Origin: Marchantia polymorpha subsp. ruderalis | Taxonomy: Eukaryota > Streptophyta > Marchantiopsida > Marchantiales > Marchantiaceae | DNA: 64,000 bases | Reading direction: 5' to 3' | NCBI GenBank assembly: GCA_037833965.1 | Contig: AP031352.1 | Location: forward strand, 7,916,501 to 7,980,500 | Shown: positions 20,651 to 52,834 of the stretch, piece after piece | How positions within the stretch are numbered: position 1 is the first letter of the stretch | Layout: each line of letters begins with the position of its first letter | Made by a program: the position numbers and the translations under genes | Notes under the pieces: model-generated | What the model was told of the DNA's origin: nothing | Database searches by the model: none | Seen by the model: the letters and a program-made list of their open reading frames with translations, nothing else

Positions 20651-20654
20651 TTTT

Positions 20655-20671
20655 TGGTTCCGTTGCCGGGA
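20655..20671 (+). other. Primer-binding site of G1
   Basis: TGGTTCCGTTGCCGGGA lies 4 bases after the LTR and has the form of a complement to a tRNA 3' CCA end. It differs in two or three positions from the Asp-type PBS common in plant Tat/Athila elements; the exact tRNA should be checked against host tRNAs. Confidence 0.7.
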
Positions 20672-21328
20672 CCTCAATCTAGAAGGCGGAATGTTTAGGA
20701 TTCGATTTCTAGCTAGAGAGAAAGTATCCATGAGGGATCACTTGGTGTTAACATTGGGGAATGAAAGAGCGGAGAGTGTGCTTGAGAGCAAAAATCCCTT
20801 TGTTTATCCAATAGTCTCATTTGATAGCTTAGAAGTGATTTTGTACGTTTTGTACACGTAAATAGGTCTTTTTGAGAGAAAAGTGATCTTAGACACCAAA
20901 AAAATATTTTTGAAGGTATTTTTCAAAGTTTTTATTGATTTTAGAGTGGAAGATAGAAAACATTTACGTTTTTGTTTCAGGTCCAGATCATGTGTTAACA
21001 GAAAGATATGAGAGTTAGAAGTTGAGTGGGTTTTCACAGGTACCAAAAGTTTGCTCTCTAGAAAGTTTGTACAGAGTAAATTACTTTTTGTGTATTTCAA
21101 TTTAGGCTTTGAAACTTCGTACGCGTGTGTATTTGAAGATTACCTACGTGTGAGTCAAAAGTTTACTGAGAGATCACGTCTAGAGACGAAGTTATGATGA
21201 TTTGAAGTTTAGGGGGTACAAAATCAGGATAAGATAGCAAAAGTTTGGGGTTTCTTTATTTGAAGTTTTGGCCTAGTAGATAACGTTTCTGGGAGAGACC
21301 TTTTGAGTGGTCTTCACCTTATGGAAAA
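20672..21328 (+). other. G1 untranslated leader with a short conserved ORF
   Basis: The 5' leader between PBS and the first long ORF. A small frame beginning MFRIRFLAREKVSMRD (20691-20861) is present almost unchanged in G2 (46753-46923). Whether it is translated is unknown; the rest shows no coding signal. Confidence 0.5.
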
Positions 21329-21772
21329 ATGAGTGATCAAGGGGGCTGGAAGGTTAATTTATCCAAAGTACCTCAAGGCTTGGATGTTATAGTGTCTTTA
21401 GACTCCAATACAAGAGAATTCAAGGTGGAGTTTGAAGAAAGAGTAGTTAGTCAATCCCCAAGAGTGAAACGTGAGAATTGCTTTTATTGTGGAGAGGAGG
21501 GACATAAGGTTGTCAATTGTTCCCTGCGGAACAAGGATAGAAGATTAAGGAGCAAGAGGACCTTGGGAGATTTGAAACTTCACTTGGGACCATCATCGCC
21601 ACATGAATCCCAAAGTGCAACATTTTGTGACAATTGCGGAGTGATTGGACTACAGGCGGGACACGAATGCAGCGGAGTGAAGGCGCTTCTAGAATCACTG
21701 GTGGAAGGGTTTGACGGCAAGCTAAGTGCTGAAACGGAGAAAGTGACCTCAGCGGGTTCAAGCTCAAACTGA
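21329..21772 (+). CDS. Extra zinc-knuckle protein upstream of gag (G1), 147 aa
   Basis: An intact ORF of 147 codons separate from gag. It contains a CCHC knuckle CFYCGEEGHKVVNC (C-x2-C-x4-H-x4-C, residues about 51-64) and a second Cys/His cluster CDNCGVIGLQAGHEC (about 100-114). The G2 copy (47393-47836) has the same length and differs at about 7 residues. It stays open in both elements while gag-pol is broken. An acidic tail continues in another frame after the stop in both copies, so frameshifting or splicing may extend it. A role in RNA binding is inferred from the knuckle only. Confidence 0.65.
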   Translation: MSDQGGWKVNLSKVPQGLDVIVSLDSNTREFKVEFEERVVSQSPRVKRENCFYCGEEGHKVVNCSLRNKDRRLRSKRTLGDLKLHLGPSSPHESQSATFCDNCGVIGLQAGHECSGVKALLESLVEGFDGKLSAETEKVTSAGSSSN

Positions 21773-21994
21773 AGATGGAGATCATCATTCAGATGATGAA
21801 AAAGATGATGATGAGGGTAGGACTCATTGTATGCCTAGGGGAGGAGAGAGCTTTGGCTATCTTGGAGCAACCAATTCCTTTTGTGTTTCCTTTGATGAAT
21901 TACTCAAGGATGGAGTTTATGTTGTTTGTATTGTACTAAGGAGTCCCATATAAATTTCCAATAGAAAAAAAGAAGATTATAAAAAAAATATTAG

Positions 21995-23446
21995 TTGGAA
22001 ATGGGGAAGCTTCCGGTGTTTTATGGGAGGGAAAATGAGGATGTAGAAGCCTTTGTTAGGGACTTCAAGAGGGCTTGCATAGGAAACAATGAAAGGAAGA
22101 AGGTTGAGTGGGCTATGCTTTTGCCGGATTTCTTGGAGGATTCTGCTCTCAAATGGTACCAAGAGTACAAGAGAGAACATGTGGAGGAGGACACTTGGGA
22201 GACATTGACGGAGAGCCTCATCGAAAACTTTCTTCCCAATGAAAGTTATGAAAAGCTGATGTGTGAGGTCACCTTCTTGAAACAAGGAGAGAACGAGAAG
22301 ATGAGGACATATGTGGAGAGAACTGAGAAGTTAGAGTCGAGGTTCCACGTGGTGTTGAGGAAGGGTGGAGACGAAGTGGATGCTACAATGGTGGGGATAC
22401 GAGCAATGCTCACGAAGAACTTTGTCGGAGGTTTGAGACCCGAGATTCGAAGTAAGGTGAGATATGAGAAGCCTTCTTCTAAAGCTGAAGCCATTTGAAT
22501 TGCTATTAGAATGGAGGAAAGCTTAGAAGATGATGATTCTAGCTTGGTGGCTAGAGAAGTAACTCCACCGGTTGTAGGAAGATCCATGGGTTCAAATCTT
22601 GCTAGTTCATCCACAATGGTGAATCCTAATGTAGATTTGCAAAATGAGTTGAAATCTATTACGGAAACTCTAGCAGACCTCAAGATCAATGTAGTACAGT
22701 TGTGGGAGAAGAGGAATCAGAATGTAGGAGGAAGTTCTAGAGGGTATGGAAATTATCCTCCAAGAGGAAATCCACCTCCAGGAAACTTTGCAGTTTCTTG
22801 TTTTACTTGTGGCGGTCCTCATTTTCAGCAAAATTGTCCTAACCCTCGACAACATGATGGAGTTCGGCACAACAACAATGCACCGGCCACACAACAAGCC
22901 AAGGATAAGGGAGTAGCATCCATTGATGTATTTCCTCATCAATGCACCTTTGAGAAAGGAGAGAGCTCAAAGTCGAAGGTGGATATCCTTGCACATGAGA
23001 AAAAACGTGCTCGATTTGCAGATGAGTCAATTTCCATGGAGGACATGCCAAGTCGGAGTACACGATCAAGTGGAGTTAGTCAACCAAGAGTACCAAGAAA
23101 AAAGTTGGGCATGAATGACTTTTCCATTTCATCTTCTCAAGCTAAGTATGACGTGGTGGAAGATGTAGGAAGTCAGAAGGCCAATATCACAGTTGGCCAA
23201 GTCATTGCTTTAAATCTAGCCATACGGAAGGAGTTGAGAGGAGGCCTTAGCTCCACAAGGATCAAGAAGCGAAGATCCAAGGGAAAGGCTCACATGACTA
23301 ATGTGGGAGTTGGTGTGGTGGATGCTGCAACCTCGGAGGTATGTACACATGCCTCAAAAATCGAAGTGAGGATCGATGGGCATGATGTTTCAGACGTGCT
23401 AGTAGATGGCGGTTCTGCTGTAATGCAATGTCTGAAAGATTGTTGA
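21995..23446 (+). pseudogene. Gag and protease of G1
   Basis: One frame with an in-frame TGA at 22496-22498, where G2 has CGA, consistent with C-to-T change at a CpG. Retrotransposon gag domain at about residues 1-170 (WAMLLPDF, LKWYQEYK, ENFLPNESYEKL), CCHC knuckle CFTCGGPHFQQNC, and the protease active site VLVDGGSAV close to the end. A single-base deletion near 23425 shifts the frame before the protease is complete; the frame starting at 23428 continues it. Confidence 0.8.
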
Positions 23447-24621
23447 TGAAGTTGGGGATGCGAATTTCCAGACCTTCAAGTATAATTGTTGGTATGGCCA
23501 ACAAACAGAAGGTAAAACCACTTGGTGTGGGTGACAAAGTTGTGGTAAGTGTGAGAGGTGTGCAAACCTTACTTTCCTTCCAAGTACTCAAGGAAGCTAG
23601 TTATGATTTGCTGTTGGGACGTCCTTGGTTGAGGGCGGTGAGAACTACTGATCGATGGTACAATGGCTATTTGAGGATAGGCCCAAAGAACCATCGGGTG
23701 AAGGTTCCTTTGACAGGAGGAGGAAGTTCTCTTACCGACTCAGATAGACCAACCGACGAATATTGGGAATCTGAGAGTGAGGAGAGTGGCAGTTTTTCAG
23801 AAGTTGACACCGACATGTCAACTGCTGATCAAGAAACATCGTCAGACGACTCTTCACATGATGATGTACAAGTTCAAGTGGTTGCTGCCATGGAGTTGCT
23901 TCTTAGACCGGGGGTGAAGAAAGATCCGGACAAAGTGGAGATGACCGAGGAGGAGGTGTGTCGAAGACTTTCCACCCTCAAGTTTGGTCCAAATGTTACC
24001 ATGGAGGAGAAGGCAAGATTTTTGGATATATTTCGCAAATATATCCATATCTTTGCCTTTAGTTACAAAGATTTGAAGCATGTGACACTTGAAACTCATC
24101 ACATTGAGTTGAAGGAGAAAGCTCGCCCTATTCGGCAGAAGCAACGACGAATCAATCCTCCTACAGCTGTGGTGGTAAAAGAGGAGATTGACAAGCTTAG
24201 GGAGGCTGGCTTCATCTATGAGGTAGAAAATTCGGAATGGGTGTCTCCTATTGTGATAGTGAAGAAAAAGAATTGTAAACTACGTGTATGTGTAGATTAC
24301 AAGAAGTTGAATGCTGTCACAAAGAAGGACTACTATACTTTAACTTTTATAGATGAGATTTTAGAAGAGGTAGCAGGCCATGAGTGGTATAGTTTTGGAG
24401 ATGGTTATAGTGGCTATAACCAAATCCAAATTGCTTCAGAGGATCAATTGAAAACTACCTTTACCACACCATGGAGAACTTTTGCCTTTAGAGTAATGCC
24501 ATTTGGTCTAGGAGTACAAGGAGATTTGGGAGTTCATTTCCAAAGGAGAATTTCCTCAAGGTATGCATTCAAGAGAAAGGAATGCATTGGTAAAAAGATG
24601 TCATTCATATATGATCATTGA
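23428..24621 (+). pseudogene. Protease end and truncated reverse transcriptase of G1
   Basis: The frame carries the rest of the protease (LLGRPWLRAVRTTDRW), an acidic linker, and RT from FIYEVENSEWVSPIVIVKK through FAFRVMPFGL. It then jumps near 24512 directly into sequence that in G2 lies after RNase H. The DD catalytic loop and the whole RNase H are therefore missing, and the last 40 residues are out of frame. This copy cannot reverse-transcribe on its own. Confidence 0.85.
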
Positions 24622-25804
24622 GAAGGTGTTATTTCATCAAAGAGCTGACGGTCTGCTACGACGAGCTGTTGGAAGAGGCGAAGCATTGCAACTCATGAAG
24701 GAGTTTCACGAAGGTGCCGTGTGTGGAGGACATTTTGCGGAGAAGGTAACAGCCTTCAAGATCCTTGATGCTGGATATCATTGGAAGGGTATTTTCAAAG
24801 ATTGTGTGGAATTTTGCAAGAGTTGTGATGTGTGTCAAGCTTTTGCTAAAAAGTCCATGAAAACACCTCCTTTGATTTCAGTTCCAATGTTAGGTCCTTT
24901 TGAAAAATGGGGGATAGATTTTGTAGGTCCTTTGAATCTTACTCCTCGGGGAAATAAGTTCATTGTGATAGCTACAGATTATCTTACCAAGTGGGTAGAG
25001 GCTAGGCCACTAAAATCTACTAATGAGAAGGAGGTTGGTAGGTTTTTGTATGAGAGAATCATAACCAGATTTGGTTGTTCTTTGGAGTTAGTGTCGGATA
25101 GAGGAGGAGAGTTTGTGGGAAGTATGATCCAAGCAATGTTAGATCATTTTTCCATCAAGTCTCGAGTGACCACTTCCTACAAACCCAATGCTAATGGGTT
25201 GGCGGAGCGGACCAACTACACTCTTTGTATGATGTTGGCCAAGGATGCAGACATGGACGGGAGCAAGCAAAACTGGGACAAGAGGTTGCATGTTATCTTG
25301 TGGGAGTATCGAACGACTTGGAAAACATCTACCGGATATTCATCTTTTCGGATGATGTATGGAGTTGAGTCAAAGCTCCCAATACAATTTGACTTGACTA
25401 CTTTCATGACAATCCAGCAAAGGTTGAAGAAATCAAATGGTGTAGAAGCCATCAAGTCTTGCCAACAACAATTGATGGAGTTGGAGGAAGCTCGAGCACT
25501 AACCATGGTACGAGTGGAGCGGGCTCAACAGTTGCAGAAGAAGTATCACGACAAACGAAGTGGAAACTAGAACTTGAAGCCGTTCAAGGAAGGTGATTGG
25601 GTGATGCTCTTTGATGCAATTAGATACAAGAGAGCTAGGAAAAAGTTTCTTCCTAAGTATTTTGGACCTTTCATAGTTGAGAAGATGTGGGGAAACTTTA
25701 CTTATGATATCAAGGAGTTAGGAGTACGTCACTTCGATCGAGTCAACCACGACAAGTTGAAATTATTCCATCGAAGATCAGATTCTTTCACTCCGAGGGC
25801 GTAG
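24563..25804 (+). pseudogene. Integrase of G1
   Basis: Zinc finger H/H/C/C (FHEGAVCGGH ... CKSCDVCQ), core Asp in GIDFVGP, second Asp in LVSDRGGEF, Glu in NGLAERTNY, then a long C-terminal tail ending HRRSDSFTPRA. No chromodomain follows. One in-frame TAG at 25568 replaces CAG of G2. The catalytic triad is complete. Confidence 0.85.
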
Positions 25805-25814
25805 TGAAATCTTG

Positions 25815-25827
25815 GTCTGGGGGTAAA
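25815..25827 (+). other. Polypurine tract of G1
   Basis: GTCTGGGGGTAAA directly precedes the 3' LTR; the matching G2 site has GTCCGGGGGTAAA. Confidence 0.6.
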
Positions 25828-26598
25828 TGTAAGACCAGATATTGCATGTGTGAATTAAAACTAGAATTAGCCAAGGAGTTAATCATGGTTAGGATAGTTA
25901 TGACTAAATCTAGCTAGTTATGACTAAGTCTAGCTAGTTTAGCTATAATGTCTATACTTGGCGGAATAACTAAAGAAGTTCTAGAAGATTTGAGTGAGCA
26001 CTTCTATTTTGTCTTGTAAAAAAGTCTAGATTCCAAGAGAAAAGACTTTTGAACTTCATGTTTAGTTTTGATTGGTTTGACTAAAGTAAGGAGTATTCCA
26101 TTGGTTAGACTAAGTCTAATGTTGACTTAGTGGAAAGTGGAAAATCTAGAAGTTGGAAAGGCACAAATGGCATGTCGCCACCTCAATCTAGGGATTGATA
26201 AACATTTAGAAGGTTTAGGGGGCCAATGGCATGTTGCCACATATTGATAACTAGTCAACCTTACTATGGTTTATCTTCGTAAAAGTAAGTTAGATAGAAA
26301 TTACCATTTGTTACTATGGTAAATTCTCAAGTAGTATATATAGAGAGGTAGGTAAGAGCCTCTCAAGCAAGTTTGGAAAGTTCATATGTAGAGACTTGTT
26401 TCATATATGAAAGGGTGACGAATTTTCAGTACCTTGGAGTGTCGATGAGTGTATGAGTTGGAGTGATACTTTGAGAGATTGTGTGAGATGGTGTTTAGGT
26501 TATGAGTATGATGCGGAATACTAGTCTTCTAGAATCATGATGAGCTACCGAAAAGCCATCTGAGTTAAACCTGAGTGAAAGTCAGCCCGAAGGTTGCA
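25828..26598 (+). repeat. 3' LTR of G1 (771 bp)
   Basis: Same ends and length as the 5' LTR. GACC follows at 26599-26602. Confidence 0.9.
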
Positions 26599-28562: not shown

Positions 28563-29300
28563 ATGGCGGCACCTTCAATTCACACGCATGGTAAACCGTT
28601 GCGACGGCGGGGTGTATCCAAGGAGCCGAAATCTCGACGCTCGCATTCCACAAACACATTGCGCAATCAACACGGAATAGAGGCGCGGAGACGAGAACGA
28701 AGAAAACGAGCGATGGTGCGATTGATGAAATTGCATGCTCTTCGAGTGCCCGAAGTCGGACTACAAGCTTATCGCCACGATTTGATCCTCACAAAGATGG
28801 ATTTCTTGTTGTGAGGTTGGAATTTGATGAGCGATGCGATCATTCAGGAGTGGGATAACAATGAGTTTCCGAAGCCACCGGGCTATCGAGGCAATCCCGA
28901 TACCTGGCAAATCTGAGACTGGAAGAAGGTCCTTGGTCGGTGCGTAGGTGATGACGGTGATTTAACATTCGATGGTGAGAGTGTGTGAGTGACGAGAGAA
29001 GAGGAAAGAGCTTATGTCGACATGTTCAAGCATCGCTGCACTGGATAGAATTGTTATCGCACAGTGTGGTATCGTGACCGAATGAGACGGAACATCGCAA
29101 TAGCTTTGATGCAGATTCTTCGGCCGTCTCGACCAACCTATATGATGACTTGGCAGGTGGGATTCATCAAGAGAGCATTGCGAGAAGATCGTATTCATTG
29201 GGCGCGTATCTTCCGGATAGTCACCCGGCAACACATCGGGCTGATTCAGGAAGGCTCCTCCTGTTATTTGTCTCCGTTCTTGATTAATTTCTATAGGGGT
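28563..29300 (+). pseudogene. N-terminal part of copy B protein
   Basis: From 28563 the frame gives a basic stretch and then a block parallel to copy A: LTKMDFLL, a stop in place of Trp, DTWQI, KVLGRCVGDDGDLTFD, RPTYMMTWQVGFIKRAL, IHWARIFRIVTRQHIG and LSPFLINFY. At least four stops interrupt it, several in Trp or Lys codons. Homology ends exactly where element M begins. Confidence 0.7.
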
Positions 29301-29301
29301 A

Positions 29302-29412
29302 TGTGTCGTGCGACTCGGTATCGCCATACATCATACATCGCTGCCATGCTCTACTCACAACTCACACATACATAAACAAGGAACGAGAGTGTCCACACAC
29401 AAAGGTATCACA
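29302..29412 (-). repeat. Candidate short 3' LTR of element M
   Basis: Begins TGTGTCG and ends TATCACA on the plus strand, directly at the end of copy B homology. On its inner side the minus strand reads AGCTAGGGGGGCGAG, a plausible polypurine tract. No second copy was seen near 36765-39480, so this remains a guess. Confidence 0.35.
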
Positions 29413-29577
29413 ACTCGCCCCCCTAGCTGGCGGTCAGGTCCCTCTGACTCCCAGGTAGCCCTATCTACAACTACATGCTATGCACCTTCGTGGGTGCGCG
29501 AACCAGTAGGCCGGGTGCTATGTCGCCCCATCGTTAGTCGCCTATCTGCAATTCATAACATGTGAAGATCAAGTCAT
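29413..29577 (-). other. 3' untranslated stretch of element M
   Basis: Between the end of the polyprotein frame and the candidate LTR. Contains the G-rich tract and no gene. Confidence 0.4.
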
Positions 29578-31976
29578 CTACCCTCTGAAGTACATCGAGG
29601 ACAAACCCACCGTCAAGTAGGAACAACATCGATAGATGGAGTCAAGCACGACATGTGCCATCCCCTAGAACACCTATCAAACACCAACATATGGGCCGCC
29701 TGATCAGTTGACCCACATAACATGCACCTCAAGCCGGCACGTACAATCGCCAAGCTTGGGTCCATAGTACCATCCACGTTTGGGAGGTGGCATGGCGCAC
29801 AGTTGCGCACATGATCCTTCCAAACGACACCGTCACGACCCTCCAACATGAGAACTCCAGAAGGTAACACCTTTCGCACTCGCAAGATAGTGCGTCTTGC
29901 CGTCACATCCAACGTAGTCGGTGCAGTCTGCTGTAGATAGACGTAGTCTCCCACACGGAACCTACGAATCGATGGTTGATAACCTCCTCCTCGAATAGTT
30001 GCATACCGCAACGTATCCCGGTGCTGAGCAATCGCAAGGTTCTTAAACGCTGCAGGCATAACTCTCCGAAAGAGCACTGCACGTTGAGAACACACTCTCA
30101 CCCACATATCTGGATCATCAAGGTTCACCACCTCGCTAGACTCACGACGAATCGCTGCAGGCAAGTCTGGATCTCGGCCGTACAATAGAAAATATGGTGA
30201 AAACGAAGCCAAGGATGCTTGACGACTGAATCGATATCCCATTGCCAACCATGGTAACTGAATATCCCAGTCCCCAAGATGCCCCTTCTGTAGGCCATAC
30301 TTGCGCAACGCTCTCTTCACCGTCTGTACCATCCGCTCAGCCAAACCATCCGCCTCTGGATGATCTCGGGAAGTAGTCCGGTGATCAATCAGCGTCTTGT
30401 CACACAAGACCTGAAACTCACCCTGAAACTCTGTCCCCTGATCGGTCAACACCTCAGCTGGTGCACCAAAGTGACTAAGCACCCTGTCAAGGAAAGCATA
30501 TGCTACTCCCTCACTCGCCTTGTCAGGTAATGCCACCAACTCAATCCACTTGGAGAAATGCTCCACCATCACCAACACATACCGATGATGTCGTGTAGTC
30601 AAAGGTAGTGGTCCAGCAAAGTCCAAACTCCAACGGTAACCCAATCCCATGATAGGTAAGGGATGTAACTCTGGTGTCGGGGCATTGAACGATGTCCTCA
30701 CTCGATCACAAACCATGCAACGTGATACCAACTGCTGCACCTGCGTATGCATACCACGCCACCAATACTTACCTAGTAGTAAGCTGTACGTACGCTTCAC
30801 TCCAAAATGTCCCAACTCCTCATGAGCATGCCTCACAATGCGTGCTCTCTCAGTTGGATGCGGTACTACCCGTACCCTACCGTCCTCCCACACTCGGAGA
30901 ACATGTGCTCCCTCCAATCGGTATCTCTTCGCCCTCTGGAGAACACGATCTCGCTCCTTGGCACCCACTGTGCCTGGCACCATACTGGTCCGTAGGAACT
31001 CCAACACTAACGCATCATCGTGAACATCCCGCTGGTCCACACCACCATCCTCAACCTCAGGATCTGAAGACTCACTATCTACTCTCTGACTAGAGTAAGA
31101 TGTCAAGTGATCCTCACTGCTAGAGGCTCCACAAAACCAACACATGAAGGCCGATGCATGCCAACCGGGCACCATCTCCTCATCAACCTCACCATGCCAC
31201 CTAGCTCTAGTGTCATCCTCCTGGCTAGTGCATGGGTTCCGACTCAAACCGTCGACATCCAGGTTCGCAACTCCAGGCCTATGCACCACCTGAAAGTCGT
31301 ACTCCTGTAAGATGAGAGCCCACCGTGCAAGCTTCCCTGTGAGCTTGTCAGACTCCATTAACCACTTGAGCGGTTGATGATCGGTAACAAGGGTAAACTG
31401 CGTACCAAACAAGTAACACCTGAAGTGTGCCACAGCCCACACCGCTGCCAAACACTCTCCCTCGTACGAACTATACCGCGACTCTGCTGCATTGTTCGAA
31501 CGACTAGCGTACGCAATCACAAACTCCTTGCCCTCATCATCACACTGCGTCAACACCGCTCCAAGTCCCAACATACTCCAATCAGTGTGCAACTGGTATG
31601 GTCGACCTCTGATAGGTCTCCTCAAGATGGGAGCGGCCACCAACCTGGCCTTGAGCTCAACAAAAGCTCTCTCCTGCTCATCTCCCCATTGCCACTCCTG
31701 ATCCGACTTCAACAACTGGTTCAAAGGCTTCGCTATAGCACTGAATCCCTTCACATATCTCTGGTAATAGTTCGCCAAGCCCATGAATGCACGAACTCTA
31801 CTCACATCCGCTGGACGAGGAATGCGTGCGATAGCCTCCACCTTTGCCTGCTGAACTCCCAAACCACCTGGGTAGATCACATGACCCAAGTACTCCACCT
31901 TCTCCTGGAAGAAACTACACTTCCTAGGATGTAACCGCAGACCATGAGCCCTCAACCGCTCAAGCACAATCTGCAA
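29578..31976 (-). pseudogene. RNase H, integrase and PHD finger of element M
   Basis: A 787-codon open stretch continuing the RT frame after a TAG. It starts with the RT thumb (LHPRKCSFFQEKVEYLGH), then RNase H (YQLHTDWSMLGLGAVL, ESRYSSYEGECLAAVW, DHQPLKWL). Integrase follows with HHCC (HAHEELGHFGVKRT ... CMVCDRVR), core Asp in SLDFAGPL, second Asp in LTDQGTEF and Glu in EADGLAERM; all catalytic residues are present. The C-terminus carries a PHD-type finger instead of a chromodomain. The frame halts at TGA 29613 within that finger. Confidence 0.85.
29588..29725 (-). pseudogene. C-terminal PHD finger of element M
   Basis: Minus-strand reading: CMLCGSTD, then MLVFDRCSRGWHMSCLTPS, VVPT, a TGA, then RWVCPRC. 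This follows the C4-H-C3 order of PHD fingers, including the GWH-x2-C core and the final C-x2-C. The third Cys ligand is Phe here (MLVFDRC versus the usual MLxCDxC) and a TGA sits where Gly is usual. PHD fingers generally read histone H3 tails; use in integration targeting is inference. Confidence 0.7.
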
Positions 31977-31982
31977 ATGTAT

Positions 31983-32705
31983 CTAGTGTTGCTCCACCGT
32001 GTCGCTAAACACCAAGATATCATCAATGTAACATCTGACGAAATCCAGCCCCGCTAGAATCCTGTCCATCACTCTCTGGAACTCGGCAGGTGCATTCTTC
32101 AACCCAAAGGGTAAGAATTGCCACTGATACAAACAATCCCTGCCGTGGGAGTTGACACCCCAAAACGTTGTCTTGGCCTTGTACTCCTCCCGAATCGGCA
32201 ACTGATGGTATCCCGCCCGAAGATCAAAAGTACTAAAAATTTTCGCATGTCCCACCACATCGAAGATCTCCTCACGTGTAGGCATGGCATACTTATCGGC
32301 CTTCGTCTGCCGATTGATAGTACGGTAATCCCCACACATCCGCCTATCCGTGTAGTTGCCATGTACATCCTTCTTCGCTGGCATAACAGTGGCTGAAGCA
32401 TACTCACCATGTGACAACTCCACTAACCTAGCCTCCAATAACTCCAACGTCCGACTCTTAATCAAGTCCCTTTCCATATCACTATATCGATAGGGACGGC
32501 GGAAGATTGGCGTATCACTAGCCAACTCTATCCGTATGTCGGGTCCAAACAAAGTACCCAACTCCTTCATACTGAAGGCAAAACAACTCCTATAGTCACG
32601 TAGGAATTGTATCAACCGTCGCCTCTCTCCTCCGGTGATCTGAGAACCAATCGATGGCTCCCACTCCTCCTCCATGGACCCACAAGAGGGAGCCGATACT
32701 GTCAC
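31983..32705 (-). pseudogene. Reverse transcriptase of element M
   Basis: Same reading frame as the methyltransferase and integrase parts, bounded by in-frame TAG codons at 32712-32714 and 31983-31985. Motifs: RRPYRYSDMERDLI, GEYASATVMPAKKD, MCGDYRTINRQT, DKYAMPTREEIFD, FSTFDLRAGYHQLPI, FLPFGLKNAPAEFQRVMDRI and the catalytic loop RCYIDDILVFSD. The polymerase core appears intact. Confidence 0.85.
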
Positions 32706-32984
32706 TGGTTGCTATGACACCTCCTCCAAAGGAGGGTTCTCTGTACTCTCCTTCGTAGCAACCTCCCCGTGACCAACATCTCCAACTGCATGGGCGTCTA
32801 CTCTCGCAAGTCCTCTCGTCACGTACCATGAACTCCAAGGATGACGAATATCTCGCAAGTCGCCCCCAGCCATTGCCACTACCGTCCCGGTAGGCAATGA
32901 GCTAATAAGTGGTGTAACAACCACCAAATCTGCGCGCAAACGGCGTTGCTCAGCCAAACCCAAGCTCACAATCCACGTAAAGCA

Positions 32985-33920
32985 GTTCAGGTCCATAGCC
33001 TGACCCAAAACCTGACGACGCGATGCCTCTGAAACTGAAGAAGCCGCGGTCACACCAGTAAGAAACCCCATCGCACGCTTTTCTCTCATCAGCGTTGGGC
33101 TCCACTAACTGATGTAGGGTACTGTCCCACAGTAGTCCAGGTCCCCCATCACGATATGCATGTGATGCCGGATAACTGACCAACGTAGGCAAAGCCATCC
33201 GAGGCTGACCTACGTGGTTCACCAATGCCATGGGTGATCTATCCGCCACTCTCACCACCTGAGAGTATCGAGAGACATCCAAGATCCTGTCAACGGTGAG
33301 AGTAGGATCACGATGCACAGAATCATACGCATGACGCAGGATATCTCTCGTGATACAAGGTTGGTCCACCACAAACGTGCACGATGAGCACGTGAACCAA
33401 CCCTCGCAGCATCCAACAACACTGCTGATCCAATCCATGCCCTGACCTCATGGACACTCGCCATCAACTGGGCCCGAATGTCACCCAACAATGGTACGTT
33501 CTCTAGAATGTATGCGGGAGAACGTGTCTGCTGCTCCTGGAGATGACGTAACACTCGTAGCATCTCCCAAAACATCCGAGATCTCGGGTCATGTAACCCT
33601 GCTCCATGCCCAGCGCGTGTGTGCCCCTGACATGGCCATCCCGCAATCACCAAATCGATATGTCCAACTCGATCGAGGTCTGGCGCCCCCAGCAATGAAA
33701 TGTCTGAAGGCAACGCCTTCTGGTATCCTCAAACAGCTGATCGCGGCAACAACAAAGGAAAACGCTGCATCAACTGTGTAACATGTCGTGAAGAAACCCG
33801 ACGTGCAGTCTCGTCCTTCTCCACGTACAAGTATCTACGTACAAGAATACCTGACTGCAACACTGCAGCCAAACCCGTGTTGATCCCTCCAAAAAGATCT
33901 AGCAAACAAACACCCTCTGG
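32985..33920 (-). pseudogene. Cytosine-5 DNA methyltransferase domain of element M
   Basis: Reading the minus strand: motif I CLLDLFGGINTGLAAVLQSG binds S-adenosylmethionine; YVEKDETARR follows; motif IV IAGWPCQGHTRAGHG holds the catalytic Cys; motif VI YILENV holds the ENV Glu; motif VIII GSRAHRARLWWTN; and LGQAMDLN at the end fits motif X. Motifs are in the canonical order over about 310 residues. A TGA at 33729-33731 lies between motifs I and IV, and the frame shifts near 33350 and back near 33085. It sits between protease and RT in the polyprotein. Retrotransposon-borne C5 methyltransferases are known, from memory, in dinoflagellates and charophyte algae. Catalysis by this copy is unlikely. 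Confidence 0.85.
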
Positions 33921-36764
33921 GGAATACTCCCATACGATAGGTGTAGTGACTAATGGTGATAGGGTGCTAAGACCACATACTAGCCGACCATCTGAGACTC
34001 GCTCTGCCTCTGCTGGTAAAGAGGCCTCACTCCAAGCCTTCTTCACCAACCTATCAGCCTCCTGCTGTAATGCGTGGCAAGAATCCCAAACTGGAACATC
34101 CAAAAATGATGACACTGCCGCTGCGAGACTCACCATCTCCTCCACCTCCTCATAGACTGGAGTATCCTCGGCTGACCTGTTCCCCTCCAACAAGTCATCA
34201 AGCCATGTGAGCACTCCAATGAAACCCGCAATAGAGGCTAAAACTGCAGGAGAAGATCCAAGAGGTCGATCTTGAGAAATGAACCTCACAGGCAGCTCAC
34301 TCATACGTCCATCACCGGACTCCCAACTAGGGCGATAAGCTGCCGTCTCCGTCCAATAATCCATCCGAAATCCCATCGGATATAACACCGCTCCACCAAC
34401 AAGCACATCATATGACTCTGCTGATGTAACCACCGCTCGAACTCCAAACTGCGAGCTATCCTGAGCATGTTCATGCCTCAACTGCACTGATATGCGCTCT
34501 CTGGTCATCCTGTAAGACCTGTCGCTGGTGCTACCGAGTGATGTCTGAATTTGGAACGGACAAGGCTCCAACTCGGACCTCCGAACTCCCAAACTAATGC
34601 AGGCAATCTTGCCCAACATCAAAGGCTGTGCACCAGAATCCAGCAACACTTTGGCTGGGACATACACCTGCCCTGTAGCACTCACCAAGCAAAATACACC
34701 GCTCCGGTTGTCCACCATACACACACCAGGGACAACCCTCTCCAGATTAATGGCTGGTCGGGCTGGCAAGGACTCCATCCGTGCCGCTGCCGCCTGCCAT
34801 GTCGACTCATCGTTCAATGGAGTCGTAGAGGATAGCTCCTCACCAATAGTCTCGCCTATCTCGGCACTCGTAGCAGTGATACTCCCACGTTCACACAACG
34901 TGGCTGCTGCACGAAAAACCCGAGCCAAGTTGATCCCAGAGTCTATCAGCTCCATAGCTGAAAACAATGGAGATCTCATCACTGAGCTAGCCATCCGCGT
35001 CACTGCACTAGATGGTGTGTCCGTGTCCACCACACGTGACGTAGATGTCTCAGTCCTCCCACTAAGGTCACTAGGTGGTACAGGCCTCATAGATGAAGTA
35101 CTGCCCACCTCTGACAACAAAAACGACTGGGGAAGTCTGGCCTGACGCCCACCCTCACCCCTCTGAGGATCCAACTCCCCTGTCGCACCGCGTGGCTCTA
35201 GAGCTCGAGCTGCACCTCTAGTCACTGCAACCGATGCCTCCACCTGTGCTGCACTCGCTAGATAAGGGAAATACTCTTCCACGTAAGAGGTGGAAGTGCT
35301 CGCCCCAGACGTCGCCATAGCAGCAAGCCTCTGCTCCAACTGCTCAATCCGAGCAGCCATCGCGCTCTCTATGGACGAAGTAGCACTCGCTACAGGACGT
35401 CCAACTACACCGGCACCTCGACCACCTCTACCAGCACGGCCACCTCGGCCTCGAGAAGCATCACCACCACGACCTCTACCACCAGATGTCAACTCTGGAT
35501 GAAGATCAAAACATCGATCTCGAGTATGATCTGCTCGACCACAGTGGTCACACACCACCTGTGCTGACTGGGGTCTGGCCTGTGAACTCTGACCTCCGGC
35601 CTCCTGGGGACAATCTCTCCGCCGATGATCCCCTCCACATGTCCAACATGCTGGTCCCTGCTGCTGGCCAGCAAACGACGGCACTAGTGCACGTGCCCCT
35701 GTATCTCTAGCGGCTGTCTGGTGTCGTGTCTGCACTCCGCGACCCCCACCACTACCACCACCAAAGGGTCTAGACTGTGCCGTGCTCTGCGGGACACGAG
35801 AGGTAGTAGCTGCGTCTCTAGCGAATGAAGAAGTCACCACTTTCTCCTCCACTATGTTAAGCTCAATCTTCTCAGAAAGAGCAAACACATAGGCCAATGT
35901 CGGTGACGCATCGCTCAAGAGGGTAGCATCTCGAACCCTCCGCCGTAGCTCTTTGTCCAGTATCCTGTACCAATACTGGACCGCCTGTGCCTCAGTTACA
36001 CCGTGAGTAATTGAGATCAACCGCCGCATACGCGTGTATGCCTCCCGAAGACTCTCACCAGTCTTCCGCTCAAACTCCAGGAGACTCCTCAACTTCTCCG
36101 TCCTCACCCCCTGATAGTTCTTCCTCAACCTCTTGAAGAACTCAGGAATGGGGCTGAACGAAGGTACGCCAGTAGTCTCTCCACTCGTGCTGGCAACGCC
36201 AACAGCACCGCTGGTGGTACCTGCTCCACTAGTACCATCGGTGATGCTACCACTCGCCCCTCCACTGGTACCAACACCACCCTGGATGATCGACGTATAC
36301 TTTGGAGACCAATGACGCCTCCATGCGTCAATCTCCACAGCATACTCTCTCCCAAACTCATGGTAGTCATCCATGGGAGGCCTCTCCAGATGCTGAAACA
36401 ACCCCTTCCATGCGAAGAAGGGTGTAAACAACGTGGGGTTACGCAAGAACTGCATATCGCACCACGTGTCAAACTCATGGATGAAATCATCCAACTCAAT
36501 GGTGCCCACTGCACCAGAGTACCGCCGTGGGCCCTTCATGGCCCCGTACATACCGTCCATGTCCCCAGTCCACGAGTGTGGGACCCTAGATGATATCACC
36601 ACCAAAGATCCGCTATCTGCCACATTCCACGCCTCTACAACCACTGATGCGCTAGGATGAGGTAGCCGATACCTCAACCCACTCCGCGTAAATCCTCCAT
36701 GGTCCTCAACGGAACCCCCAAACTCCTCCGTGATGACTGACTCACCAATCGGCACCACTGCCAC
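33729..36764 (-). CDS. Gag-protease-methyltransferase N-part of element M, 1011 aa
   Basis: Long intact minus-strand ORF. Gag region near the start (TIELDDFIHEFDTWCDMQF, REAYTRMRRL). Two zinc knuckles follow: CWTCGGDHRRRDC (about 35615-35655, C-x2-C-x3-H-x4-C) and CDHCGRADHTRDRC (about 35510-35551). Arg/Gly-rich repeats lie between the knuckles and the protease. The aspartic protease active site is LLDSGAQPLML (about 34610-34650). The ORF ends 51 residues after methyltransferase motif I at a TGA; the same frame continues beyond. The start at 36764 is the first ATG of the frame and suits a GC-rich leader upstream. Confidence 0.85.
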   Translation of the reverse strand: MAVVPIGESVITEEFGGSVEDHGGFTRSGLRYRLPHPSASVVVEAWNVADSGSLVVISSRVPHSWTGDMDGMYGAMKGPRRYSGAVGTIELDDFIHEFDTWCDMQFLRNPTLFTPFFAWKGLFQHLERPPMDDYHEFGREYAVEIDAWRRHWSPKYTSIIQGGVGTSGGASGSITDGTSGAGTTSGAVGVASTSGETTGVPSFSPIPEFFKRLRKNYQGVRTEKLRSLLEFERKTGESLREAYTRMRRLISITHGVTEAQAVQYWYRILDKELRRRVRDATLLSDASPTLAYVFALSEKIELNIVEEKVVTSSFARDAATTSRVPQSTAQSRPFGGGSGGGRGVQTRHQTAARDTGARALVPSFAGQQQGPACWTCGGDHRRRDCPQEAGGQSSQARPQSAQVVCDHCGRADHTRDRCFDLHPELTSGGRGRGGDASRGRGGRAGRGGRGAGVVGRPVASATSSIESAMAARIEQLEQRLAAMATSGASTSTSYVEEYFPYLASAAQVEASVAVTRGAARALEPRGATGELDPQRGEGGRQARLPQSFLLSEVGSTSSMRPVPPSDLSGRTETSTSRVVDTDTPSSAVTRMASSVMRSPLFSAMELIDSGINLARVFRAAATLCERGSITATSAEIGETIGEELSSTTPLNDESTWQAAAARMESLPARPAINLERVVPGVCMVDNRSGVFCLVSATGQVYVPAKVLLDSGAQPLMLGKIACISLGVRRSELEPCPFQIQTSLGSTSDRSYRMTRERISVQLRHEHAQDSSQFGVRAVVTSAESYDVLVGGAVLYPMGFRMDYWTETAAYRPSWESGDGRMSELPVRFISQDRPLGSSPAVLASIAGFIGVLTWLDDLLEGNRSAEDTPVYEEVEEMVSLAAAVSSFLDVPVWDSCHALQQEADRLVKKAWSEASLPAEAERVSDGRLVCGLSTLSPLVTTPIVWEYSPEGVCLLDLFGGINTGLAAVLQSGILVRRYLYVEKDETARRVSSRHVTQLMQRFPLLLPRSAV

Positions 36765-37290
36765 AACTCCACCTGCCCTCGTCCCTGCACTAACCTGCTC
36801 TAGCCCTACTGACTATGGGTATGGGCAACCTAACCTGTCATCACCGCAAGAAGACTCTCCTGGTCCACTGGTCATCACTCCAGTCTCACCATGAGAGAAA
36901 CAAAGATAGGCGCCGGTGATCAAATCCAGCCGCACTATCGACAGCACACTGGAGTAAAACTACTCCGGAAATCAACGTCAACCCAGACATGGGCGCGCAT
37001 CAAGAAGCCAGACTTGAGAGGATCCAAACACAAGAAAAACGGCTAGCAACGACTCTCCAGCCGAAATGAAACACAGCACAGAACAACACAACACACGGGA
37101 CATCGCCTCGCATCGCGACCCCGAGTCGAACTCCATCGCCCCCTACGACCTTCCGTCTCCAGCGCCTGCAACGCCATCCCGTTCATCCCATCGCAAAGAT
37201 GATATCCACGCCGAGCTGTCCCGTACTTCACCTCATACCTCCAGTTCACGCTTCAACCAGGGGCAAGGAATATAACAAATAGGAAAAACC
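36765..37290 (-). other. Leader of element M
   Basis: GC-rich, without long ORFs, upstream of gag on the minus strand. At about 37270 the composition changes to AT-rich. No primer-binding site with a TGG start next to an LTR end was recognised. Confidence 0.4.
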
Positions 37291-37795
37291 TATCTACCCT
37301 AACTGTTCCACATAGACAAAAGTAATAATGATAAAACCATTATTTTCACAACTGAAAAATCATAATAAATGAGACCGAGTGCAAATTTTCAATCTCTCCA
37401 AAATTTAATTTTTTTTTTCTTTTCTCTTTGATTTTTTTTTTCAAGTGAGATCTTCAACATCCATTCTAAAAAATAATTGAAGTCACATTTCAAGAACTTA
37501 TCAGGCTCTCAAGGTCGAGATTCCGACAGAATAAGCCCGACCTGCATAGGGACTCGTAATGGCAGCATTCACAACTCTAGGGGAACTACAGACCAAAATT
37601 ACGAGATCGGAGAAAGAATGTCTGTAACGAGTTCTAAAAAATACGTGTGGCCTGGACCCTAGGTCTAAGTTTTTCTCCTTCCAAGGGGTAAATTACAGCT
37701 GAAAGTGTACCTACAATAGCTTCATTGAAAGGGAGAAAAATCTGAAATTCGGTGAAATGAAGTGCGAATCGAAAGCACCGTGTTTGCTCTCCTTC
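37291..37795. other. AT-rich linker
   Basis: Contains long T runs near 37410-37445 and no gene that I recognise. It may include intron or 3' sequence of the captured helicase fragment. Confidence 0.4.
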
Positions 37796-37799
37796 TAGT

Positions 37800-38385
37800 A
37801 TATAATTTCATCCCTTTCTGAAAAAGCTCCTCCACGAAAGCTTTCCAAGTATGCAAGCAACCAGCATGATGAGCACCATGGTTCAACAGCAGACTATCGG
37901 ATGGCCTCTGGAAGCTGAAATTCAGTTATAGCTTCCCTAACCTGCATAGACTCTTCTTTTGGGAGTAACCAAACAATCTGTTAAATATTTCACCACTGTG
38001 TAAAAACCAGATAGCTGGCGGCATATCTCTCGTGAGCAGCTGATGTAATATGTCTCTCAGCAATACTGATACTGCGCAGTAATCACCAGAATGGCAGCGT
38101 CTTTGTTGTCTGCAGCATCCCGGGTAAGAAGCCCGATTTTGGTATCACCAAAGACTTTTCTAAACTCATGCTTCTGGTTTGAGAAAGCTTTCATTGGTAT
38201 GTAGAACATTTGTCTTCAGCTGGCTAAGGTTGCCACAGCTGCAGCTTCTGCTATGAGTGTCCTCCCACTACTAGTGGGAGCACAAACTACAACTGACAAA
38301 CCGACAAACCCTTCAAAGATCCATCAGTAGGCATCCTTTGAAACTTATCGTAAGGAAACTCGTAGAGATCTCCAATGTCTCTCGC
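37800..38385 (-). pseudogene. ISE2-like DExH RNA helicase fragment
   Basis: The minus-strand translation in changing frames gives DLYEFPYDKFQ (helicase entry), APTSSGRTLIAEAAAVATLA (Walker A, with Lys of GKT changed to Arg), MKAFSNQKHEFRKVFGDTK, IGLLTRDAADNKDAA, RDMPPAIWF and HHAGCLHTWKAFVEELFQ. Order and spacing match the Ski2-like plastid helicase ISE2, but the segment from motif II to RDMPPAIWF is deleted and stops or shifts are present. The parent gene acts in plastid RNA processing. This is a dead, internally deleted copy. Confidence 0.7.
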
Positions 38386-38729
38386 AGTAACTGTAACTCC
38401 ATCACCTGCTTGTACTCTCGCAAAACTGAGCCATCAAAGCGGACGTGCTTTCCGTTCTTCAATTTTGACACAACTACTCACTCAACAGCACCAAAACGTG
38501 CACTCTGCGAGAAATGGAGATCGACGCTCTAAGAAAAACGCCGACCGCCCTGACAACAGCAAGACGACTTGATCGCATCATTCTCCGCATCTGTAAACCC
38601 CTCCGCTCCTGAAAAAAAACCCGACACCCAGAGTTAACTTTCAGACGCGAAAGTCAACTTCCTGATTTGGAATCAGGAATCGCAAGCAAGCCCAAGTGCT
38701 CGCACGATCGTAGCTCTTCTCCGCCACGC
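38386..38729. other. Linker between captured gene fragments
   Basis: No motif recognised. A minus-strand frame runs on from the gamma-chain fragment (to 38641) but no longer resembles it; the rest may be intron or rearranged sequence. Confidence 0.35.
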
Positions 38730-38915
38730 GCACACACTTCTTGACGGGTCTGATCTGGGTAAGGGGAATGTTGATGTCCTCGGTCTGCCGCTGCGACTTC
38801 ACATTGAAGAGATCCTTCACGAGATTCTCCAAAAAGGGGCAGCTTGCATGACATCAGTGATCTTCTGAGTGATTTTCATGGTGTCGATGCGGTCTTGAAG
38901 ATCATTTAAGCTGTC
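38730..38915 (-). pseudogene. Plastid ATP synthase gamma-chain fragment
   Basis: The minus strand gives LNDLQDRIDTMKITQKITDVMQ and, after a frame change, PFLENLVKDLFN ... TEDINIPLTQIRPVKK. This matches the N-terminal helix and following region of the nuclear-encoded chloroplast gamma chain (pattern RDRIxxVKNTQKITEAM ... PFxExLVxVLYN ... PLTxVRPVKK). About a dozen residues are deleted between the blocks. It covers only the N-terminal region; the rest of the gene is absent. Confidence 0.65.
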
Positions 38916-39469
38916 CTAGCGGCTCTTGCCCACTTTGCTGTCAACGCGCTCCACAACAAAAACACCGAAGCGTACCACGCGCGCAGATAAACAAACCCTC
39001 ACACCTACTAGTATATCACACTCTGTTGAGCCCTCCGAGCCTTCGATGAGGGAGTGATAAAACACAGACACGACCACCGGAGAATGAACCAACGAACACC
39101 ACACCGACACTGACGTATTTGGCACCAGAAACAAGAACACAACACGAGACGCAGTTCTTTGAGTAAAAGGAATGTCGAAACACAAATCCACGAAGAGTCG
39201 AGCCAAACTCACTACTCGTAGGTAGACTAAAAGTCGAAGCTAAGGGGAAAAACCCCGACGCGTAAGGCTCAACTCGAAGAATTGACAGTTTTTCGAGTTC
39301 GCCACGAATATAAACCTGTAAAGTTGACCTAGCCTATGCTCCGCGTCTCAACGTTAGCCGACTTCCAACGTTCCCCGACTCACGCTCGAAACCAACGTGT
39401 GTCTAAACTCAAATCGACAACAACGTCGATCTGCAACTGCACTAACGTGCATACACATGACATATGGGA
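38916..39469. other. Unassigned sequence right of the captured fragments
   Basis: A minus-strand frame (39212-38916) runs into the gamma-chain fragment and could be the former transit-peptide region, but I see no clear similarity. It ends where copy B homology resumes. No LTR for element M was identified here. Confidence 0.35.
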
Positions 39470-45884: not shown

Positions 45885-46712
45885 TGTAAGACCGGGTGTT
45901 GCACATATGTACTAAGTCTTAGAAGTGGTCAAGGGAATAAGGATGATTAGCCAAGGCATAGCTAAGACTAGCTAGTCATGACTAAACTAGTTAGTTATAA
46001 CTAAGTTTATCTAGTCATGACTAAGTTTAGCTACAATGTCTATAGTTGGCGGAGTAATTAGCGGAGTTCTAGAAGAATGGAGTGAGCACTTCTATTTTGT
46101 CTTATACAAAAGTTCTAGATTCCAAGGGATTAGATATTTGACTAGAAGCTTGGATTTGATTGGTTTGACTAAATGTATGAAAGATGATTGGCTAGACTAA
46201 GTCTAATGTTGACTTAGTGGCTAGGAAGCTTGTAGAAGTTTAAAAGCTTCCAATGGCATGTCGCCACCTCAACCTTGGATTCCGGAAGCTTCTAGAAGGT
46301 TTAGGTAGGCCAATGGCATGTTGCCACGTAGAGGGGGTTAGTCAAACTTACCTAGGTAAAAGTAAGTTAAGAGAGATTACCACATGTTACTATGGTAACT
46401 TCTCAAGTAGTATAAATAGAGAGGTAGAGTAGCACCTCTCAAGCAAGTTTGAGAGTCATGTGTGAGGACTTGTTTCAAGAATGAAGGAGTGAAGTTTTTG
46501 AGTATCTTGGAGTATCGACGTGTGTTTGCGTTTATGTGAAGAGAGTGACGTGAGGAGAGTTTGTGTGTGAGTTGGAGTAATACATGGCGAGTTTGTGAGA
46601 GAAGGTGTTTGGGACATGAGTGAGAGGATGAATCCTAGTCTTCTAGAAGCATGATGCGCTACCACAAAGCCATCAGAGGTAAACCTGAGTGAGAGTCAGC
46701 CCGGAGGTTGCA
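45885..46712 (+). repeat. 5' LTR of G2 (828 bp)
   Basis: TGTAAGACC to GGTTGCA. Shares the start, many internal blocks and the end with G1 LTRs but is clearly a different subfamily. Confidence 0.9.
46411..46419 (+). promoter_or_regulatory. TATA box in the G2 5' LTR
   Basis: TATAAATAG followed by AGAGGTAGAG, at the position equivalent to the G1 TATA site. Confidence 0.6.
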
Positions 46713-46716
46713 TTTT

Positions 46717-46733
46717 TGGTTCCGTTGCCGGGA
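46717..46733 (+). other. Primer-binding site of G2
   Basis: TGGTTCCGTTGCCGGGA, identical to G1, four bases after the LTR. Confidence 0.7.
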
Positions 46734-47836: not shown

Positions 47837-48052
47837 AAATGGAGATCATCATTCGAATGATGGAGAAGATGATGATGAGGGTAAGACTCATCGTATGCCT
47901 AGGAGAGGAGAGAGCTTTGGCTATCCTGGAACAACCAATTCCTTTTGTGTTTCCTTTGATGAATTACTCAAGGATGGAGTTAGTGTTGTTTATTTTGTAT
48001 TAAGAAGCCCCATATAAATTTCCAATAGAATAGAAGAAAAAAAAAAAATTAG

Positions 48053-49678: not shown

Positions 49679-49687
49679 CGTCCTTGG

Positions 49688-52824: not shown

Positions 52825-52834
52825 TGAAATCTTG

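What the first reader, a model, noticed from the sequence alone, without database searches (positions are those of the whole stretch)
29302..37290. Gypsy retrotransposon that carries both a DNA methyltransferase and a PHD finger
Seen: minus-strand polyprotein order gag, CCHC x2, protease, C5-methyltransferase motifs I, IV, VI, VIII, X, RT, RNase H, integrase with full D-D-E, PHD-like finger. Known: C5-methyltransferases have been described in some eukaryotic retrotransposons; chromodomains and PHD fingers occur at integrase ends. Inferred: the element could write cytosine methylation (perhaps on its own DNA, to pass as silent or to avoid toxicity) and read histone marks for integration. I do not know of this writer-plus-reader combination having been characterised.
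Basis: partly seen in the sequence, partly recalled or inferred. Interest (0 to 1): 0.93.

Follow-up and report, generated by a model that had tools for sequence, protein, structure and literature searches.

The report
DNA-methylating retrotransposon with histone-reading finger
The window holds a worn-out copy of a common liverwort retrotransposon that encodes a DNA-methylating enzyme and, on its integrase, a predicted histone-reading finger, and the same pairing recurs in a green alga and in many metagenomic relatives.

Summary
The window, from Marchantia polymorpha, carries a minus-strand Gypsy-type element at 29304-39462, longer than reported and flanked by a 4-bp target duplication (CATA). 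Gag, two CCHC knuckles, protease, C5-methyltransferase, RT, RNase H, DDE integrase and PHD are all there, but this copy is broken in methyltransferase, RT and PHD. The family is large: 24-mer probes find 265 methyltransferase, 292 integrase and 316 PHD sites. The methyltransferase is DNMT3-like in predicted structure and under purifying selection (dN/dS 0.13 between subfamilies). It ends in a conserved leaky-type stop, UAG-CAA-YYA (18 of 18 copies read; UAG at 183 of 190 sites), so it should be made with Gag, and RT-IN-PHD only by read-through. Ends are split repeats (A..B-A-B). Of 104 homologues with an integrase, mostly metagenomic, 90 have a PHD-like finger after it. All 40 element methyltransferases in a tree form one clade, apart from Marchantia's own DNMT3. 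DNMT-bearing Gypsy elements with such repeats were known (KnitGypsy-Dnmt3). New, as far as the held library shows: the PHD partner, the leaky stop, the breadth and the land-plant abundance. Enzyme activity, read-through and histone binding are untested.

The parts
29304..39462 (-). whole element, first to last base
   Evidence: ends TGTCATG...CACGACA found by comparison with family copies
29300..29303 (.). target-site duplication CATA (3' side)
   Evidence: 4-bp TSD in 6 of 6 testable copies
39463..39466 (.). target-site duplication CATA (5' side)
39152..39462 (-). A1 terminal repeat (5' end)
   Evidence: 39152-39427 matches A1 and A2 of L024 at 83-84%; the last 35 bases by the end motif
37254..39151 (-). 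variable 5' stretch, differs between copies
   Evidence: pairwise comparison of 19 upstream regions, 8 of them only 2.2 kb long; patchwork of matches elsewhere in the genome
36813..37253 (-). conserved leader before ORF1
   Evidence: 97% identical to L024
35805..36563 (-). gag
   Evidence: tblastn; weak Retrotrans_gag hit
35472..35651 (-). two CCHC zinc knuckles
   Evidence: and sequence
34338..34727 (-). aspartic protease (DSGA by eye)
   Evidence: weak RVP_2 hit in L017
33012..33917 (-). DNMT3-like C5-methyltransferase, broken here by one stop and two frameshifts
   Evidence: open homologue modelled
32712..32714 (-). leaky-type UAG followed by CAA CCA, end of ORF1
31812..32426 (-). reverse transcriptase (premature stop in this copy)
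   Evidence: RVT_1 69.1 bits
31287..31691 (-). RNase H
   Evidence: RT_RNaseH 123.2 bits
30687..30875 (-). integrase zinc-binding domain
   Evidence: Integrase_H2C2 59.1 bits
30312..30656 (-). integrase DDE core
   Evidence: rve 53.6 bits
29757..30311 (-). integrase C-terminal part; five strands predicted, barrel-like by eye
29586..29741 (-). PHD finger, degenerate here (one Cys lost, internal stop)
   Evidence: intact C4HC3 in 13 of 13 copies with full-length ORF2
29304..29415 (-). B terminal repeat (3' end); the internal A2 and second B are absent here

Best explanation
This is a decayed copy of a large family of Gypsy-type retrotransposons in Marchantia polymorpha. The family belongs to a lineage, seen in bryophytes, green algae and metagenomes, that carries a DNMT3-like methyltransferase and, as a rule, an integrase-borne PHD finger. 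Shown by sequence: the architecture, its conservation, purifying selection, the conserved UAG-CAA-YYA stop, split direct repeats and 4-bp target duplications. Inferred: most ribosomes stop at the UAG and make Gag-protease-methyltransferase, so the methyltransferase is packed into particles at Gag-like levels; a few read through and add RT-RNase H-integrase-PHD. In the particle the methyltransferase puts 5-methylcytosine on the new double-stranded cDNA before it integrates, so that the insert arrives already marked like resident silent elements. The PHD then holds the integrase on nucleosomes whose H3 tail is unmethylated at K4, steering insertion to chromatin without active-promoter marks.
For: Family-wide presence: PF00145 matches at 123 scored places of 290 candidates, a few of them host genes; 24-mer counts MT 265, IN 292, PHD 316 with 0 in reversed controls. 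In 40 of 40 element rows the catalytic Cys and the ENV Glu are kept. AlphaFold model pLDDT 94.1, pTM 0.90; all 50 listed PDB matches, of 192 at E <= 0.001, are entries of DNMT3A, 3B or 3C, some with DNMT3L. dN/dS between two subfamilies (8 and 3 copies, 24 pairs): MT 0.132, PR 0.148, IN 0.089, PHD 0.149, RT 0.050, against 0.465 for the linker after the MT. UAG-CAA-YYA in 18 of 18 copies; UAG at 183 of 190 sites with the following context. PHD-like finger downstream in 90 of 104 homologues with an integrase. Nearest solved PHDs include CHD4, PHF21A/BHC80, KDM5A/B, ATXR5, UHRF1, BAZ2A, several solved with H3 peptides by their titles. TSD of 4 bp in 6 of 6 testable copies. Related element DNMTs (SymbioDIRS-Dnmt3) methylate CG de novo in yeast (PMC5890265, section 10 read).
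Against: No activity, methylation, read-through or binding data here. The Gypsy-type DNMT that was assayed (KnitGypsy-Dnmt3) gave no methylation in yeast, called inconclusive by its authors. CpG observed/expected is 0.70-0.74 in the element and 0.71 in the rest of the window, so no extra depletion; singleton C-to-T rates are highest at CG in two of four data sets and at CHG in the other two, on small counts. Within one subfamily (8 copies, 28 pairs) dN/dS is 0.243 for the MT, close to the linker (0.284), and 0.511 for the integrase core, so recent constraint is not distinct there. Six homologues with long tails after the integrase lack the PHD pattern, and the named Cymbomonas and Sphagnum records show none (short tails). 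In type B relatives the methyltransferase sits between RNase H and integrase, so Gag-like dosage is not general.
Confidence: 0.55

Rival explanations
1. The methyltransferase acts in trans: it silences related copies or competing elements, or dampens host defence, as copy-number control or superinfection exclusion, rather than marking its own cDNA.
For: Made upstream of the leaky-type stop, hence probably abundant; large family; DNMT3 enzymes act on chromatin DNA in animals (recalled).
Against: In the homologues it lies inside the retroelement polyprotein, in two layouts, which points to a particle-bound role; purifying selection between subfamilies is what a cis-acting function predicts.
Confidence: 0.2
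2. The methyltransferase works on RNA, or protects cDNA from degradation or deamination, and has no lasting epigenetic effect.
For: Motif IV reads EC instead of PC in 14 of 40 element rows, so some enzymes depart from the norm; no extra CpG depletion; KnitGypsy-Dnmt3 gave no 5mC in yeast.
Against: The Marchantia rows shown keep PCQ, ENV and HRAR motifs; fold and sequence are nearest to DNMT3, with the tRNA enzyme DNMT2 much weaker.
Confidence: 0.15
3. The PHD finger is an assembly or host-factor contact, not a histone reader.
For: Histone binding is not testable here; some PHDs bind non-histone partners (recalled).
Against: Zinc ligands, the Asp after the third Cys (28 of 28 rows chosen for reaching past the integrase) and the late Trp (25 of 28, Phe in 3) are kept as in H3-binding PHDs; it sits where chromoviruses carry a chromodomain (recalled).
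Confidence: 0.2
4. One-off insertion, assembly chimera or chance similarity.
For: The window copy is broken and its PHD falls below Pfam's cut-off.
Against: Hundreds of sites in the genome; annotated Marchantia, Sphagnum, Monoraphidium and Cymbomonas proteins and many metagenome proteins with the methyltransferase in a retroelement polyprotein.
Confidence: 0.01

Closest known systems
KnitGypsy-Dnmt3 of Klebsormidium nitens (PMC5890265; sections 9 and 10 and passages read)
   Same: Gypsy-type polyprotein with an unrearranged Dnmt3-type domain, DIRS-like repeat layout, purifying selection on the DNMT.
   Different: The paper's main text holds no 'PHD' or 'frameshift' and no 'Marchantia' (count); figures not seen. 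Here a PHD on the integrase, a leaky-type UAG after the DNMT, hundreds of sites in a land plant, and a wide set of relatives. Its sequence was not in hand, so kinship is untested.
SymbioDIRS-Dnmt3 of Symbiodinium (PMC5890265, passages)
   Same: Dnmt3-type domain in a retroelement with A..B-A-B repeats.
   Different: Tyrosine recombinase instead of DDE integrase; no PHD mentioned.
Chromoviruses (chromodomain Gypsy elements; recalled)
   Same: Chromatin-reading module at the integrase C-terminus.
   Different: Chromodomain, not PHD; no methyltransferase.
UAG-CAR-YYA read-through of tobamoviruses and gag-pol stop read-through of gammaretroviruses (recalled); Tca2 with a UGA between gag and pol (PMC2194720, start of abstract in listing, where the bypass is called unclear)
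   Same: Gag-side product ends at a stop and Pol lies behind it.
   Different: Here the product upstream of the stop includes a DNA methyltransferase.
Animal DNMT3A/B (recalled)
   Same: DNMT3 catalytic fold linked with a finger that reads H3 unmethylated at K4 (ADD domain).
   Different: Here the finger is on the integrase at the far end of the polyprotein.

Membership tests
Ty3/Gypsy retrotransposon | Order PR-RT-RNase H-integrase with DDE core | tested here: met
   protease only by position, motif and a weak hit
Ty3/Gypsy retrotransposon | Two identical long terminal repeats | tested here: not met
   A1 ... B1-A2-B2 split repeats in the 5 copies with both ends read; joint GCACGACAGCTGTCATG 169 times in the genome
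Ty3/Gypsy retrotransposon | Short target-site duplication made by integrase | tested here: met
   4 bp in 6 of 6 testable copies
DIRS/PAT elements | Split direct repeats | tested here: met
DIRS/PAT elements | Tyrosine recombinase, no TSD | tested here: not met
   no such Pfam hit in ORF1 or ORF2 of L017 and L025, rve found; the 5' leader was not scanned; TSD present
KnitGypsy-Dnmt3 type | Dnmt3-type domain in a Gypsy polyprotein with DIRS-like repeats | tested here: met
   definition from PMC5890265
KnitGypsy-Dnmt3 type | Sequence clade with the K. nitens elements | not tested
   no K. nitens element was named in the lists; the K. nitens DNMT3 P0176 was dropped from the tree for coverage
DNMT3 methyltransferases | Unrearranged motifs with catalytic Cys; DNMT3 fold | tested here: met
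DNMT3 methyltransferases | Nests with cellular DNMT3 | tested here: inconclusive
   element rows form their own clade on a long stem (1.59) in a 67-row tree with midpoint root
PHD finger | C4-H-C3 zinc ligands | tested here: met
   13 of 13 copies with full-length ORF2; lost in the window copy
H3K4me3-reading PHD | Cage Trp two residues before the His | tested here: not met
   0 of 89 homologues matched by a pattern; the cage rule is recalled
UAG-CARYYA read-through | Conserved UAG in that context between in-frame ORFs | tested here: met
   18 of 18 copies; 183 of 190 sites; the motif rule is recalled
UAG-CARYYA read-through | Measured read-through | not testable with these tools
   needs a reporter or ribosome profiling

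The most novel reading that the evidence does not exclude
The two domains are one working unit: a mobile, split version of the DNMT3 writer-reader. The particle methylates its cDNA and the integrase finger selects nucleosomes unmethylated at H3K4, so each insertion lands where DNMT3-type methylation is tolerated and brings the mark with it. This would be an old self-camouflage strategy running from green algae to bryophytes, and a route by which retrotransposons seed new methylated chromatin in host genomes.
Probability: 0.3. Interest if true: 0.9.

Novelty: new variant of a known kind. Interest (0 to 1): 0.72.

Why it matters
Why a transposon would carry the enzyme that normally silences transposons is an open question. 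This lineage shows the enzyme kept under selection, paired with a predicted chromatin reader and placed before a leaky-type stop, in a haploid model plant with published methylomes (for example PMC5784723, passages read). That makes the self-methylation idea directly testable. [quoted passage not shown]

Tried and rejected
One-off insertion: rejected by family counts. Origin from Marchantia's own DNMT3: not supported, since MpDNMT3a and MpDNMT3b group with plant DNMT3 and all 40 element rows stand apart. The stop between methyltransferase and RT as decay: rejected. Nested-insertion dating from the flanking repeats at 25828 and 40194: only about 0.8 kb of repeat aligns, so there is no empty site. 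LTR dating of this copy: impossible, it has a single A and a single B. CpG depletion and singleton C-to-T context as a methylation footprint: mixed, no conclusion. Viral contigs: 2 stretches matched a pattern, none a relative. Rfam: no hit at gathering score. The phmmer label PHD can mistake the linker for the finger (P0034); I therefore use the pattern counts. In one search I chose 73 rows by hand and six (P0144, P0045, P0176, P0214, P0225, P0230) fell out for coverage, leaving 67 of the 242 domain sequences; the labels 'dino' and 'bac' are partly my guess. In one search P0011 and one type B row fell out, leaving 34. One search stopped with an error at its last motif; one search completed the counts.
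Full report
What the window is. The window is G000:C3:7916501-7980500 of a 241-Mb, 9-contig assembly. ORF1 of another copy in the same assembly (L017) is up to 96% identical, over the searched region, to Marchantia polymorpha subsp. ruderalis records, and contig C6 has the same length (31,446,154) as the longest contig of the record MpDNMT3b. So the host is this liverwort.

The observation. The ends were found by comparison with other copies: the element spans 29304-39462 and is flanked by CATA on both sides. The copy is decayed: a stop and two frameshifts in the methyltransferase, a stop in RT, and a PHD that has lost one Cys and contains a stop.

The family. I fetched 18 other copies of 10 kb, chosen for long open frames, so they are not a random sample. 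All 18 have an ORF1 of 1351-1365 codons open from stop to stop, ending in UAG-CAA-YYA. In 13 of the 18 ORF2 is open over its whole length (1042-1045 codons) in the same frame, and all 13 keep the C4HC3 PHD. Genome-wide, the stretch after the stop occurs 190 times and UAG stands before it in 183 (exact matches to a pattern built from these copies). Probes of 24 bases with up to 2 mismatches find 265 methyltransferase, 292 integrase and 316 PHD sites, with none for the reversed controls. The methyltransferase is therefore a regular part of the family. PF00145 itself gave 123 scored places of 290 candidates, a few of them host genes; the ORF2 protein search scored 44 of 4738 candidates.

Ends. 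Ten copies were read further on both sides. A repeat A (254-295 bp as aligned) was found at the 5' end of five of them: L013, L017, L019, L024, L025; in the other five it was not within reach or is missing. At the 3' end the B-A joint stands in 9 of 10, and B-A-B is complete in 8 (B 112-119 bp, 85 in L017); L018 runs on into a second unit, and L012, like the window copy, has a single B. The joint GCACGACAGCTGTCATG occurs 169 times in the genome. Ends are TGTCATG and CACGACA, and the flanks carry exact 4-bp duplications in 6 of 6 testable copies: window, L013, L017, L019, L024, L025. So an element with a DDE integrase and DIRS-like repeats integrates with a short duplication. DIRS-like repeats with Gypsy domains were noted for KnitGypsy-Dnmt3. 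L018's head-to-tail arrangement suggests a circular or concatemeric intermediate (inference).

Methyltransferase. The nearest solved sequences are DNMT3A (E 2.7e-9), with HaeIII methylase far weaker (1.5e-4). The domain of L017 (ORF1 residues 961-1261) models with pLDDT 94.1, and the 50 listed structural matches (of 192 at E <= 0.001) are all DNMT3 entries (best E 5.3e-17, TM 0.72). In 40 element rows the catalytic Cys and ENV Glu are invariant; motif IV is PC in 26 and EC in 14. Between two subfamilies (8 and 3 of the 18 copies, 24 pairs) dN/dS is 0.132 for the domain, similar to the protease (0.148), above RT (0.050) and below the linker that follows (0.465). Within the larger subfamily (28 pairs) the contrast is gone: 0.243 for the domain, 0.284 for the linker, 0.511 for the integrase core. 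So the evidence for constraint comes from the older split. In a 67-row tree the 40 element rows form one clade (100/100) apart from plant and animal DNMT3 and bacterial rows. The rows came from word-sharing searches and were chosen by hand, and the stem is long, so a single capture is supported only for this sample; no K. nitens sequence is in it.

Relatives. Two searches gave 145 homologues (one search scored only the 7992 candidates that share most words). Named hosts are Marchantia, Sphagnum fallax, Monoraphidium neglectum and Cymbomonas tetramitiformis; most are metagenome proteins without a host name. Two layouts exist. Type A, as here, has the methyltransferase between protease and RT: 10 homologues show it before RT and 33 more show only PR-MT. 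Type B has RT-RNase H-MT-integrase: 79 homologues, 72 of them with a PHD-like finger after the integrase. Type B is one clade in the methyltransferase tree (100/98) and in the RT tree (100/100). Whether type A is a clade or surrounds type B is not settled: the deep forks are open and the RT root rests on one long outgroup row. The domain most likely changed place once; the direction is open.

PHD. Of 104 homologues with an integrase, 90 have a PHD-like pattern after it; of the 14 without, 8 end within 132 residues (among them the Sphagnum and Cymbomonas records) and 6 have longer tails. Among the five type A homologues with MT, RT and integrase, three have it (P0045, P0142, P0144) and two do not (P0034, P0036), besides the Marchantia copies. 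Monoraphidium (P0087) has PHD by its precomputed Pfam. The nearest solved PHDs are CHD4, KMT2D, PHF12, PHF21A, DPF2/3, KDM5A/B, ATXR5, AIRE, UHRF1; structural matches include BHC80, ATXR5 with H3, and BAZ2A with unmodified H3K4 peptide, but also double PHD fingers with acylated H3K14. The model of this part is weaker overall (pLDDT 77.2, pTM 0.39) but 83-92 over the finger. The residue two before the His, a cage Trp in H3K4me3 readers (recalled), is Trp in 0 of 89 and Gly in 74. I therefore predict a reader of H3 unmethylated at K4. Animal DNMT3 carries such a reader in its ADD domain (recalled), so the element pairs the same two functions at opposite ends of one polyprotein.

Mechanism. The leaky-type stop lies after the methyltransferase. 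The main product would be Gag-protease-methyltransferase and the minor one the full polyprotein. That dosage, the position inside the polyprotein and the selection favour action on the element's own cDNA within the particle. Steps shown: anatomy, conservation, stop context, target duplications. Steps inferred: read-through, packaging, methylation of cDNA, histone reading. Against: no extra CpG depletion (0.70-0.74 in the element, 0.71 in the rest of the window) and mixed C-to-T contexts, and no activity of the K. nitens domain in yeast, which its authors call inconclusive.

Literature. PMC5890265 was read in sections 9 and 10 and in passages; PMC6338049, PMC12344493, PMC6453930, PMC5784723, PMC8226300 and PMC9998398 in passages. 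[quoted passage not shown] PMC9998398 found no DNMT3 in MMETSP green algae. The figures are not held, so I cannot exclude that Fig. 4c of PMC5890265 draws a further domain. Ten searches listed no paper whose title or abstract start describes a DNMT-PHD retrotransposon or such an element in Marchantia; several lists were cut (for example 20 of 1,629), and most subscription papers are not in that library.

Verdict. A real and well-conserved element. It is a new variant of a known kind (DNMT3-bearing Gypsy elements), with a new partner domain, a likely dosage device and a wider host range than I found described in the held library.

Noticed in passing
window 37254-39151; L017, L019 and other copies upstream of ORF1: The stretch between the A1 repeat and the conserved leader differs from copy to copy (L017 and L019 share A1 and leader at 98% but show no match in the roughly 2.7-2.9 kb between). 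The window's version is a patchwork, with a 375-bp piece 99% identical to a site on C9.
   Followed up: partly
G000:C1 (5.6 Mb, probably the sex chromosome by size): 14 of the 169 B-A joints lie on this contig, which is 2.3% of the assembly, about 3.6 times the average density.
   Followed up: no
L018 (G000:C2:20746000-20755999) and beyond: Two units stand head to tail, joined at the B-A joint; in the second unit A directly abuts the leader.
   Followed up: partly
G000:C3:16767000-16795000: Four copies, 98-99% identical to L017 in ORF2 protein, in alternating orientation; probably a segmental duplication or palindrome.
   Followed up: no
window 19880-26598 and 45885-53707: Two related elements, Gypsy-like by eye, with LTR pairs (46079 and 53073 100% identical over 300 nt), and a third LTR copy at 40194; the finding's element lies between the repeats at 25828 and 40194.
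   Followed up: partly
window 16807-17600: Nested inverted repeats of 75-86 nt (85-90% complementary), possibly a DNA transposon or foldback element.
   Followed up: no
P0208 (Chytridium lagenaria): A chytrid protein with DNA_methylase, PHD and GATA-type fingers by precomputed Pfam: a writer plus PHD outside a retroelement polyprotein.
   Followed up: no
P0111: A full type B polyprotein deposited in a MAG labelled Minisyncoccia bacterium, most likely a eukaryotic contig binned wrongly.
   Followed up: no
homologue methyltransferases, motif IV: EC in place of PC before the catalytic-loop residues in 14 of 40 element methyltransferases, both layouts.
   Followed up: no
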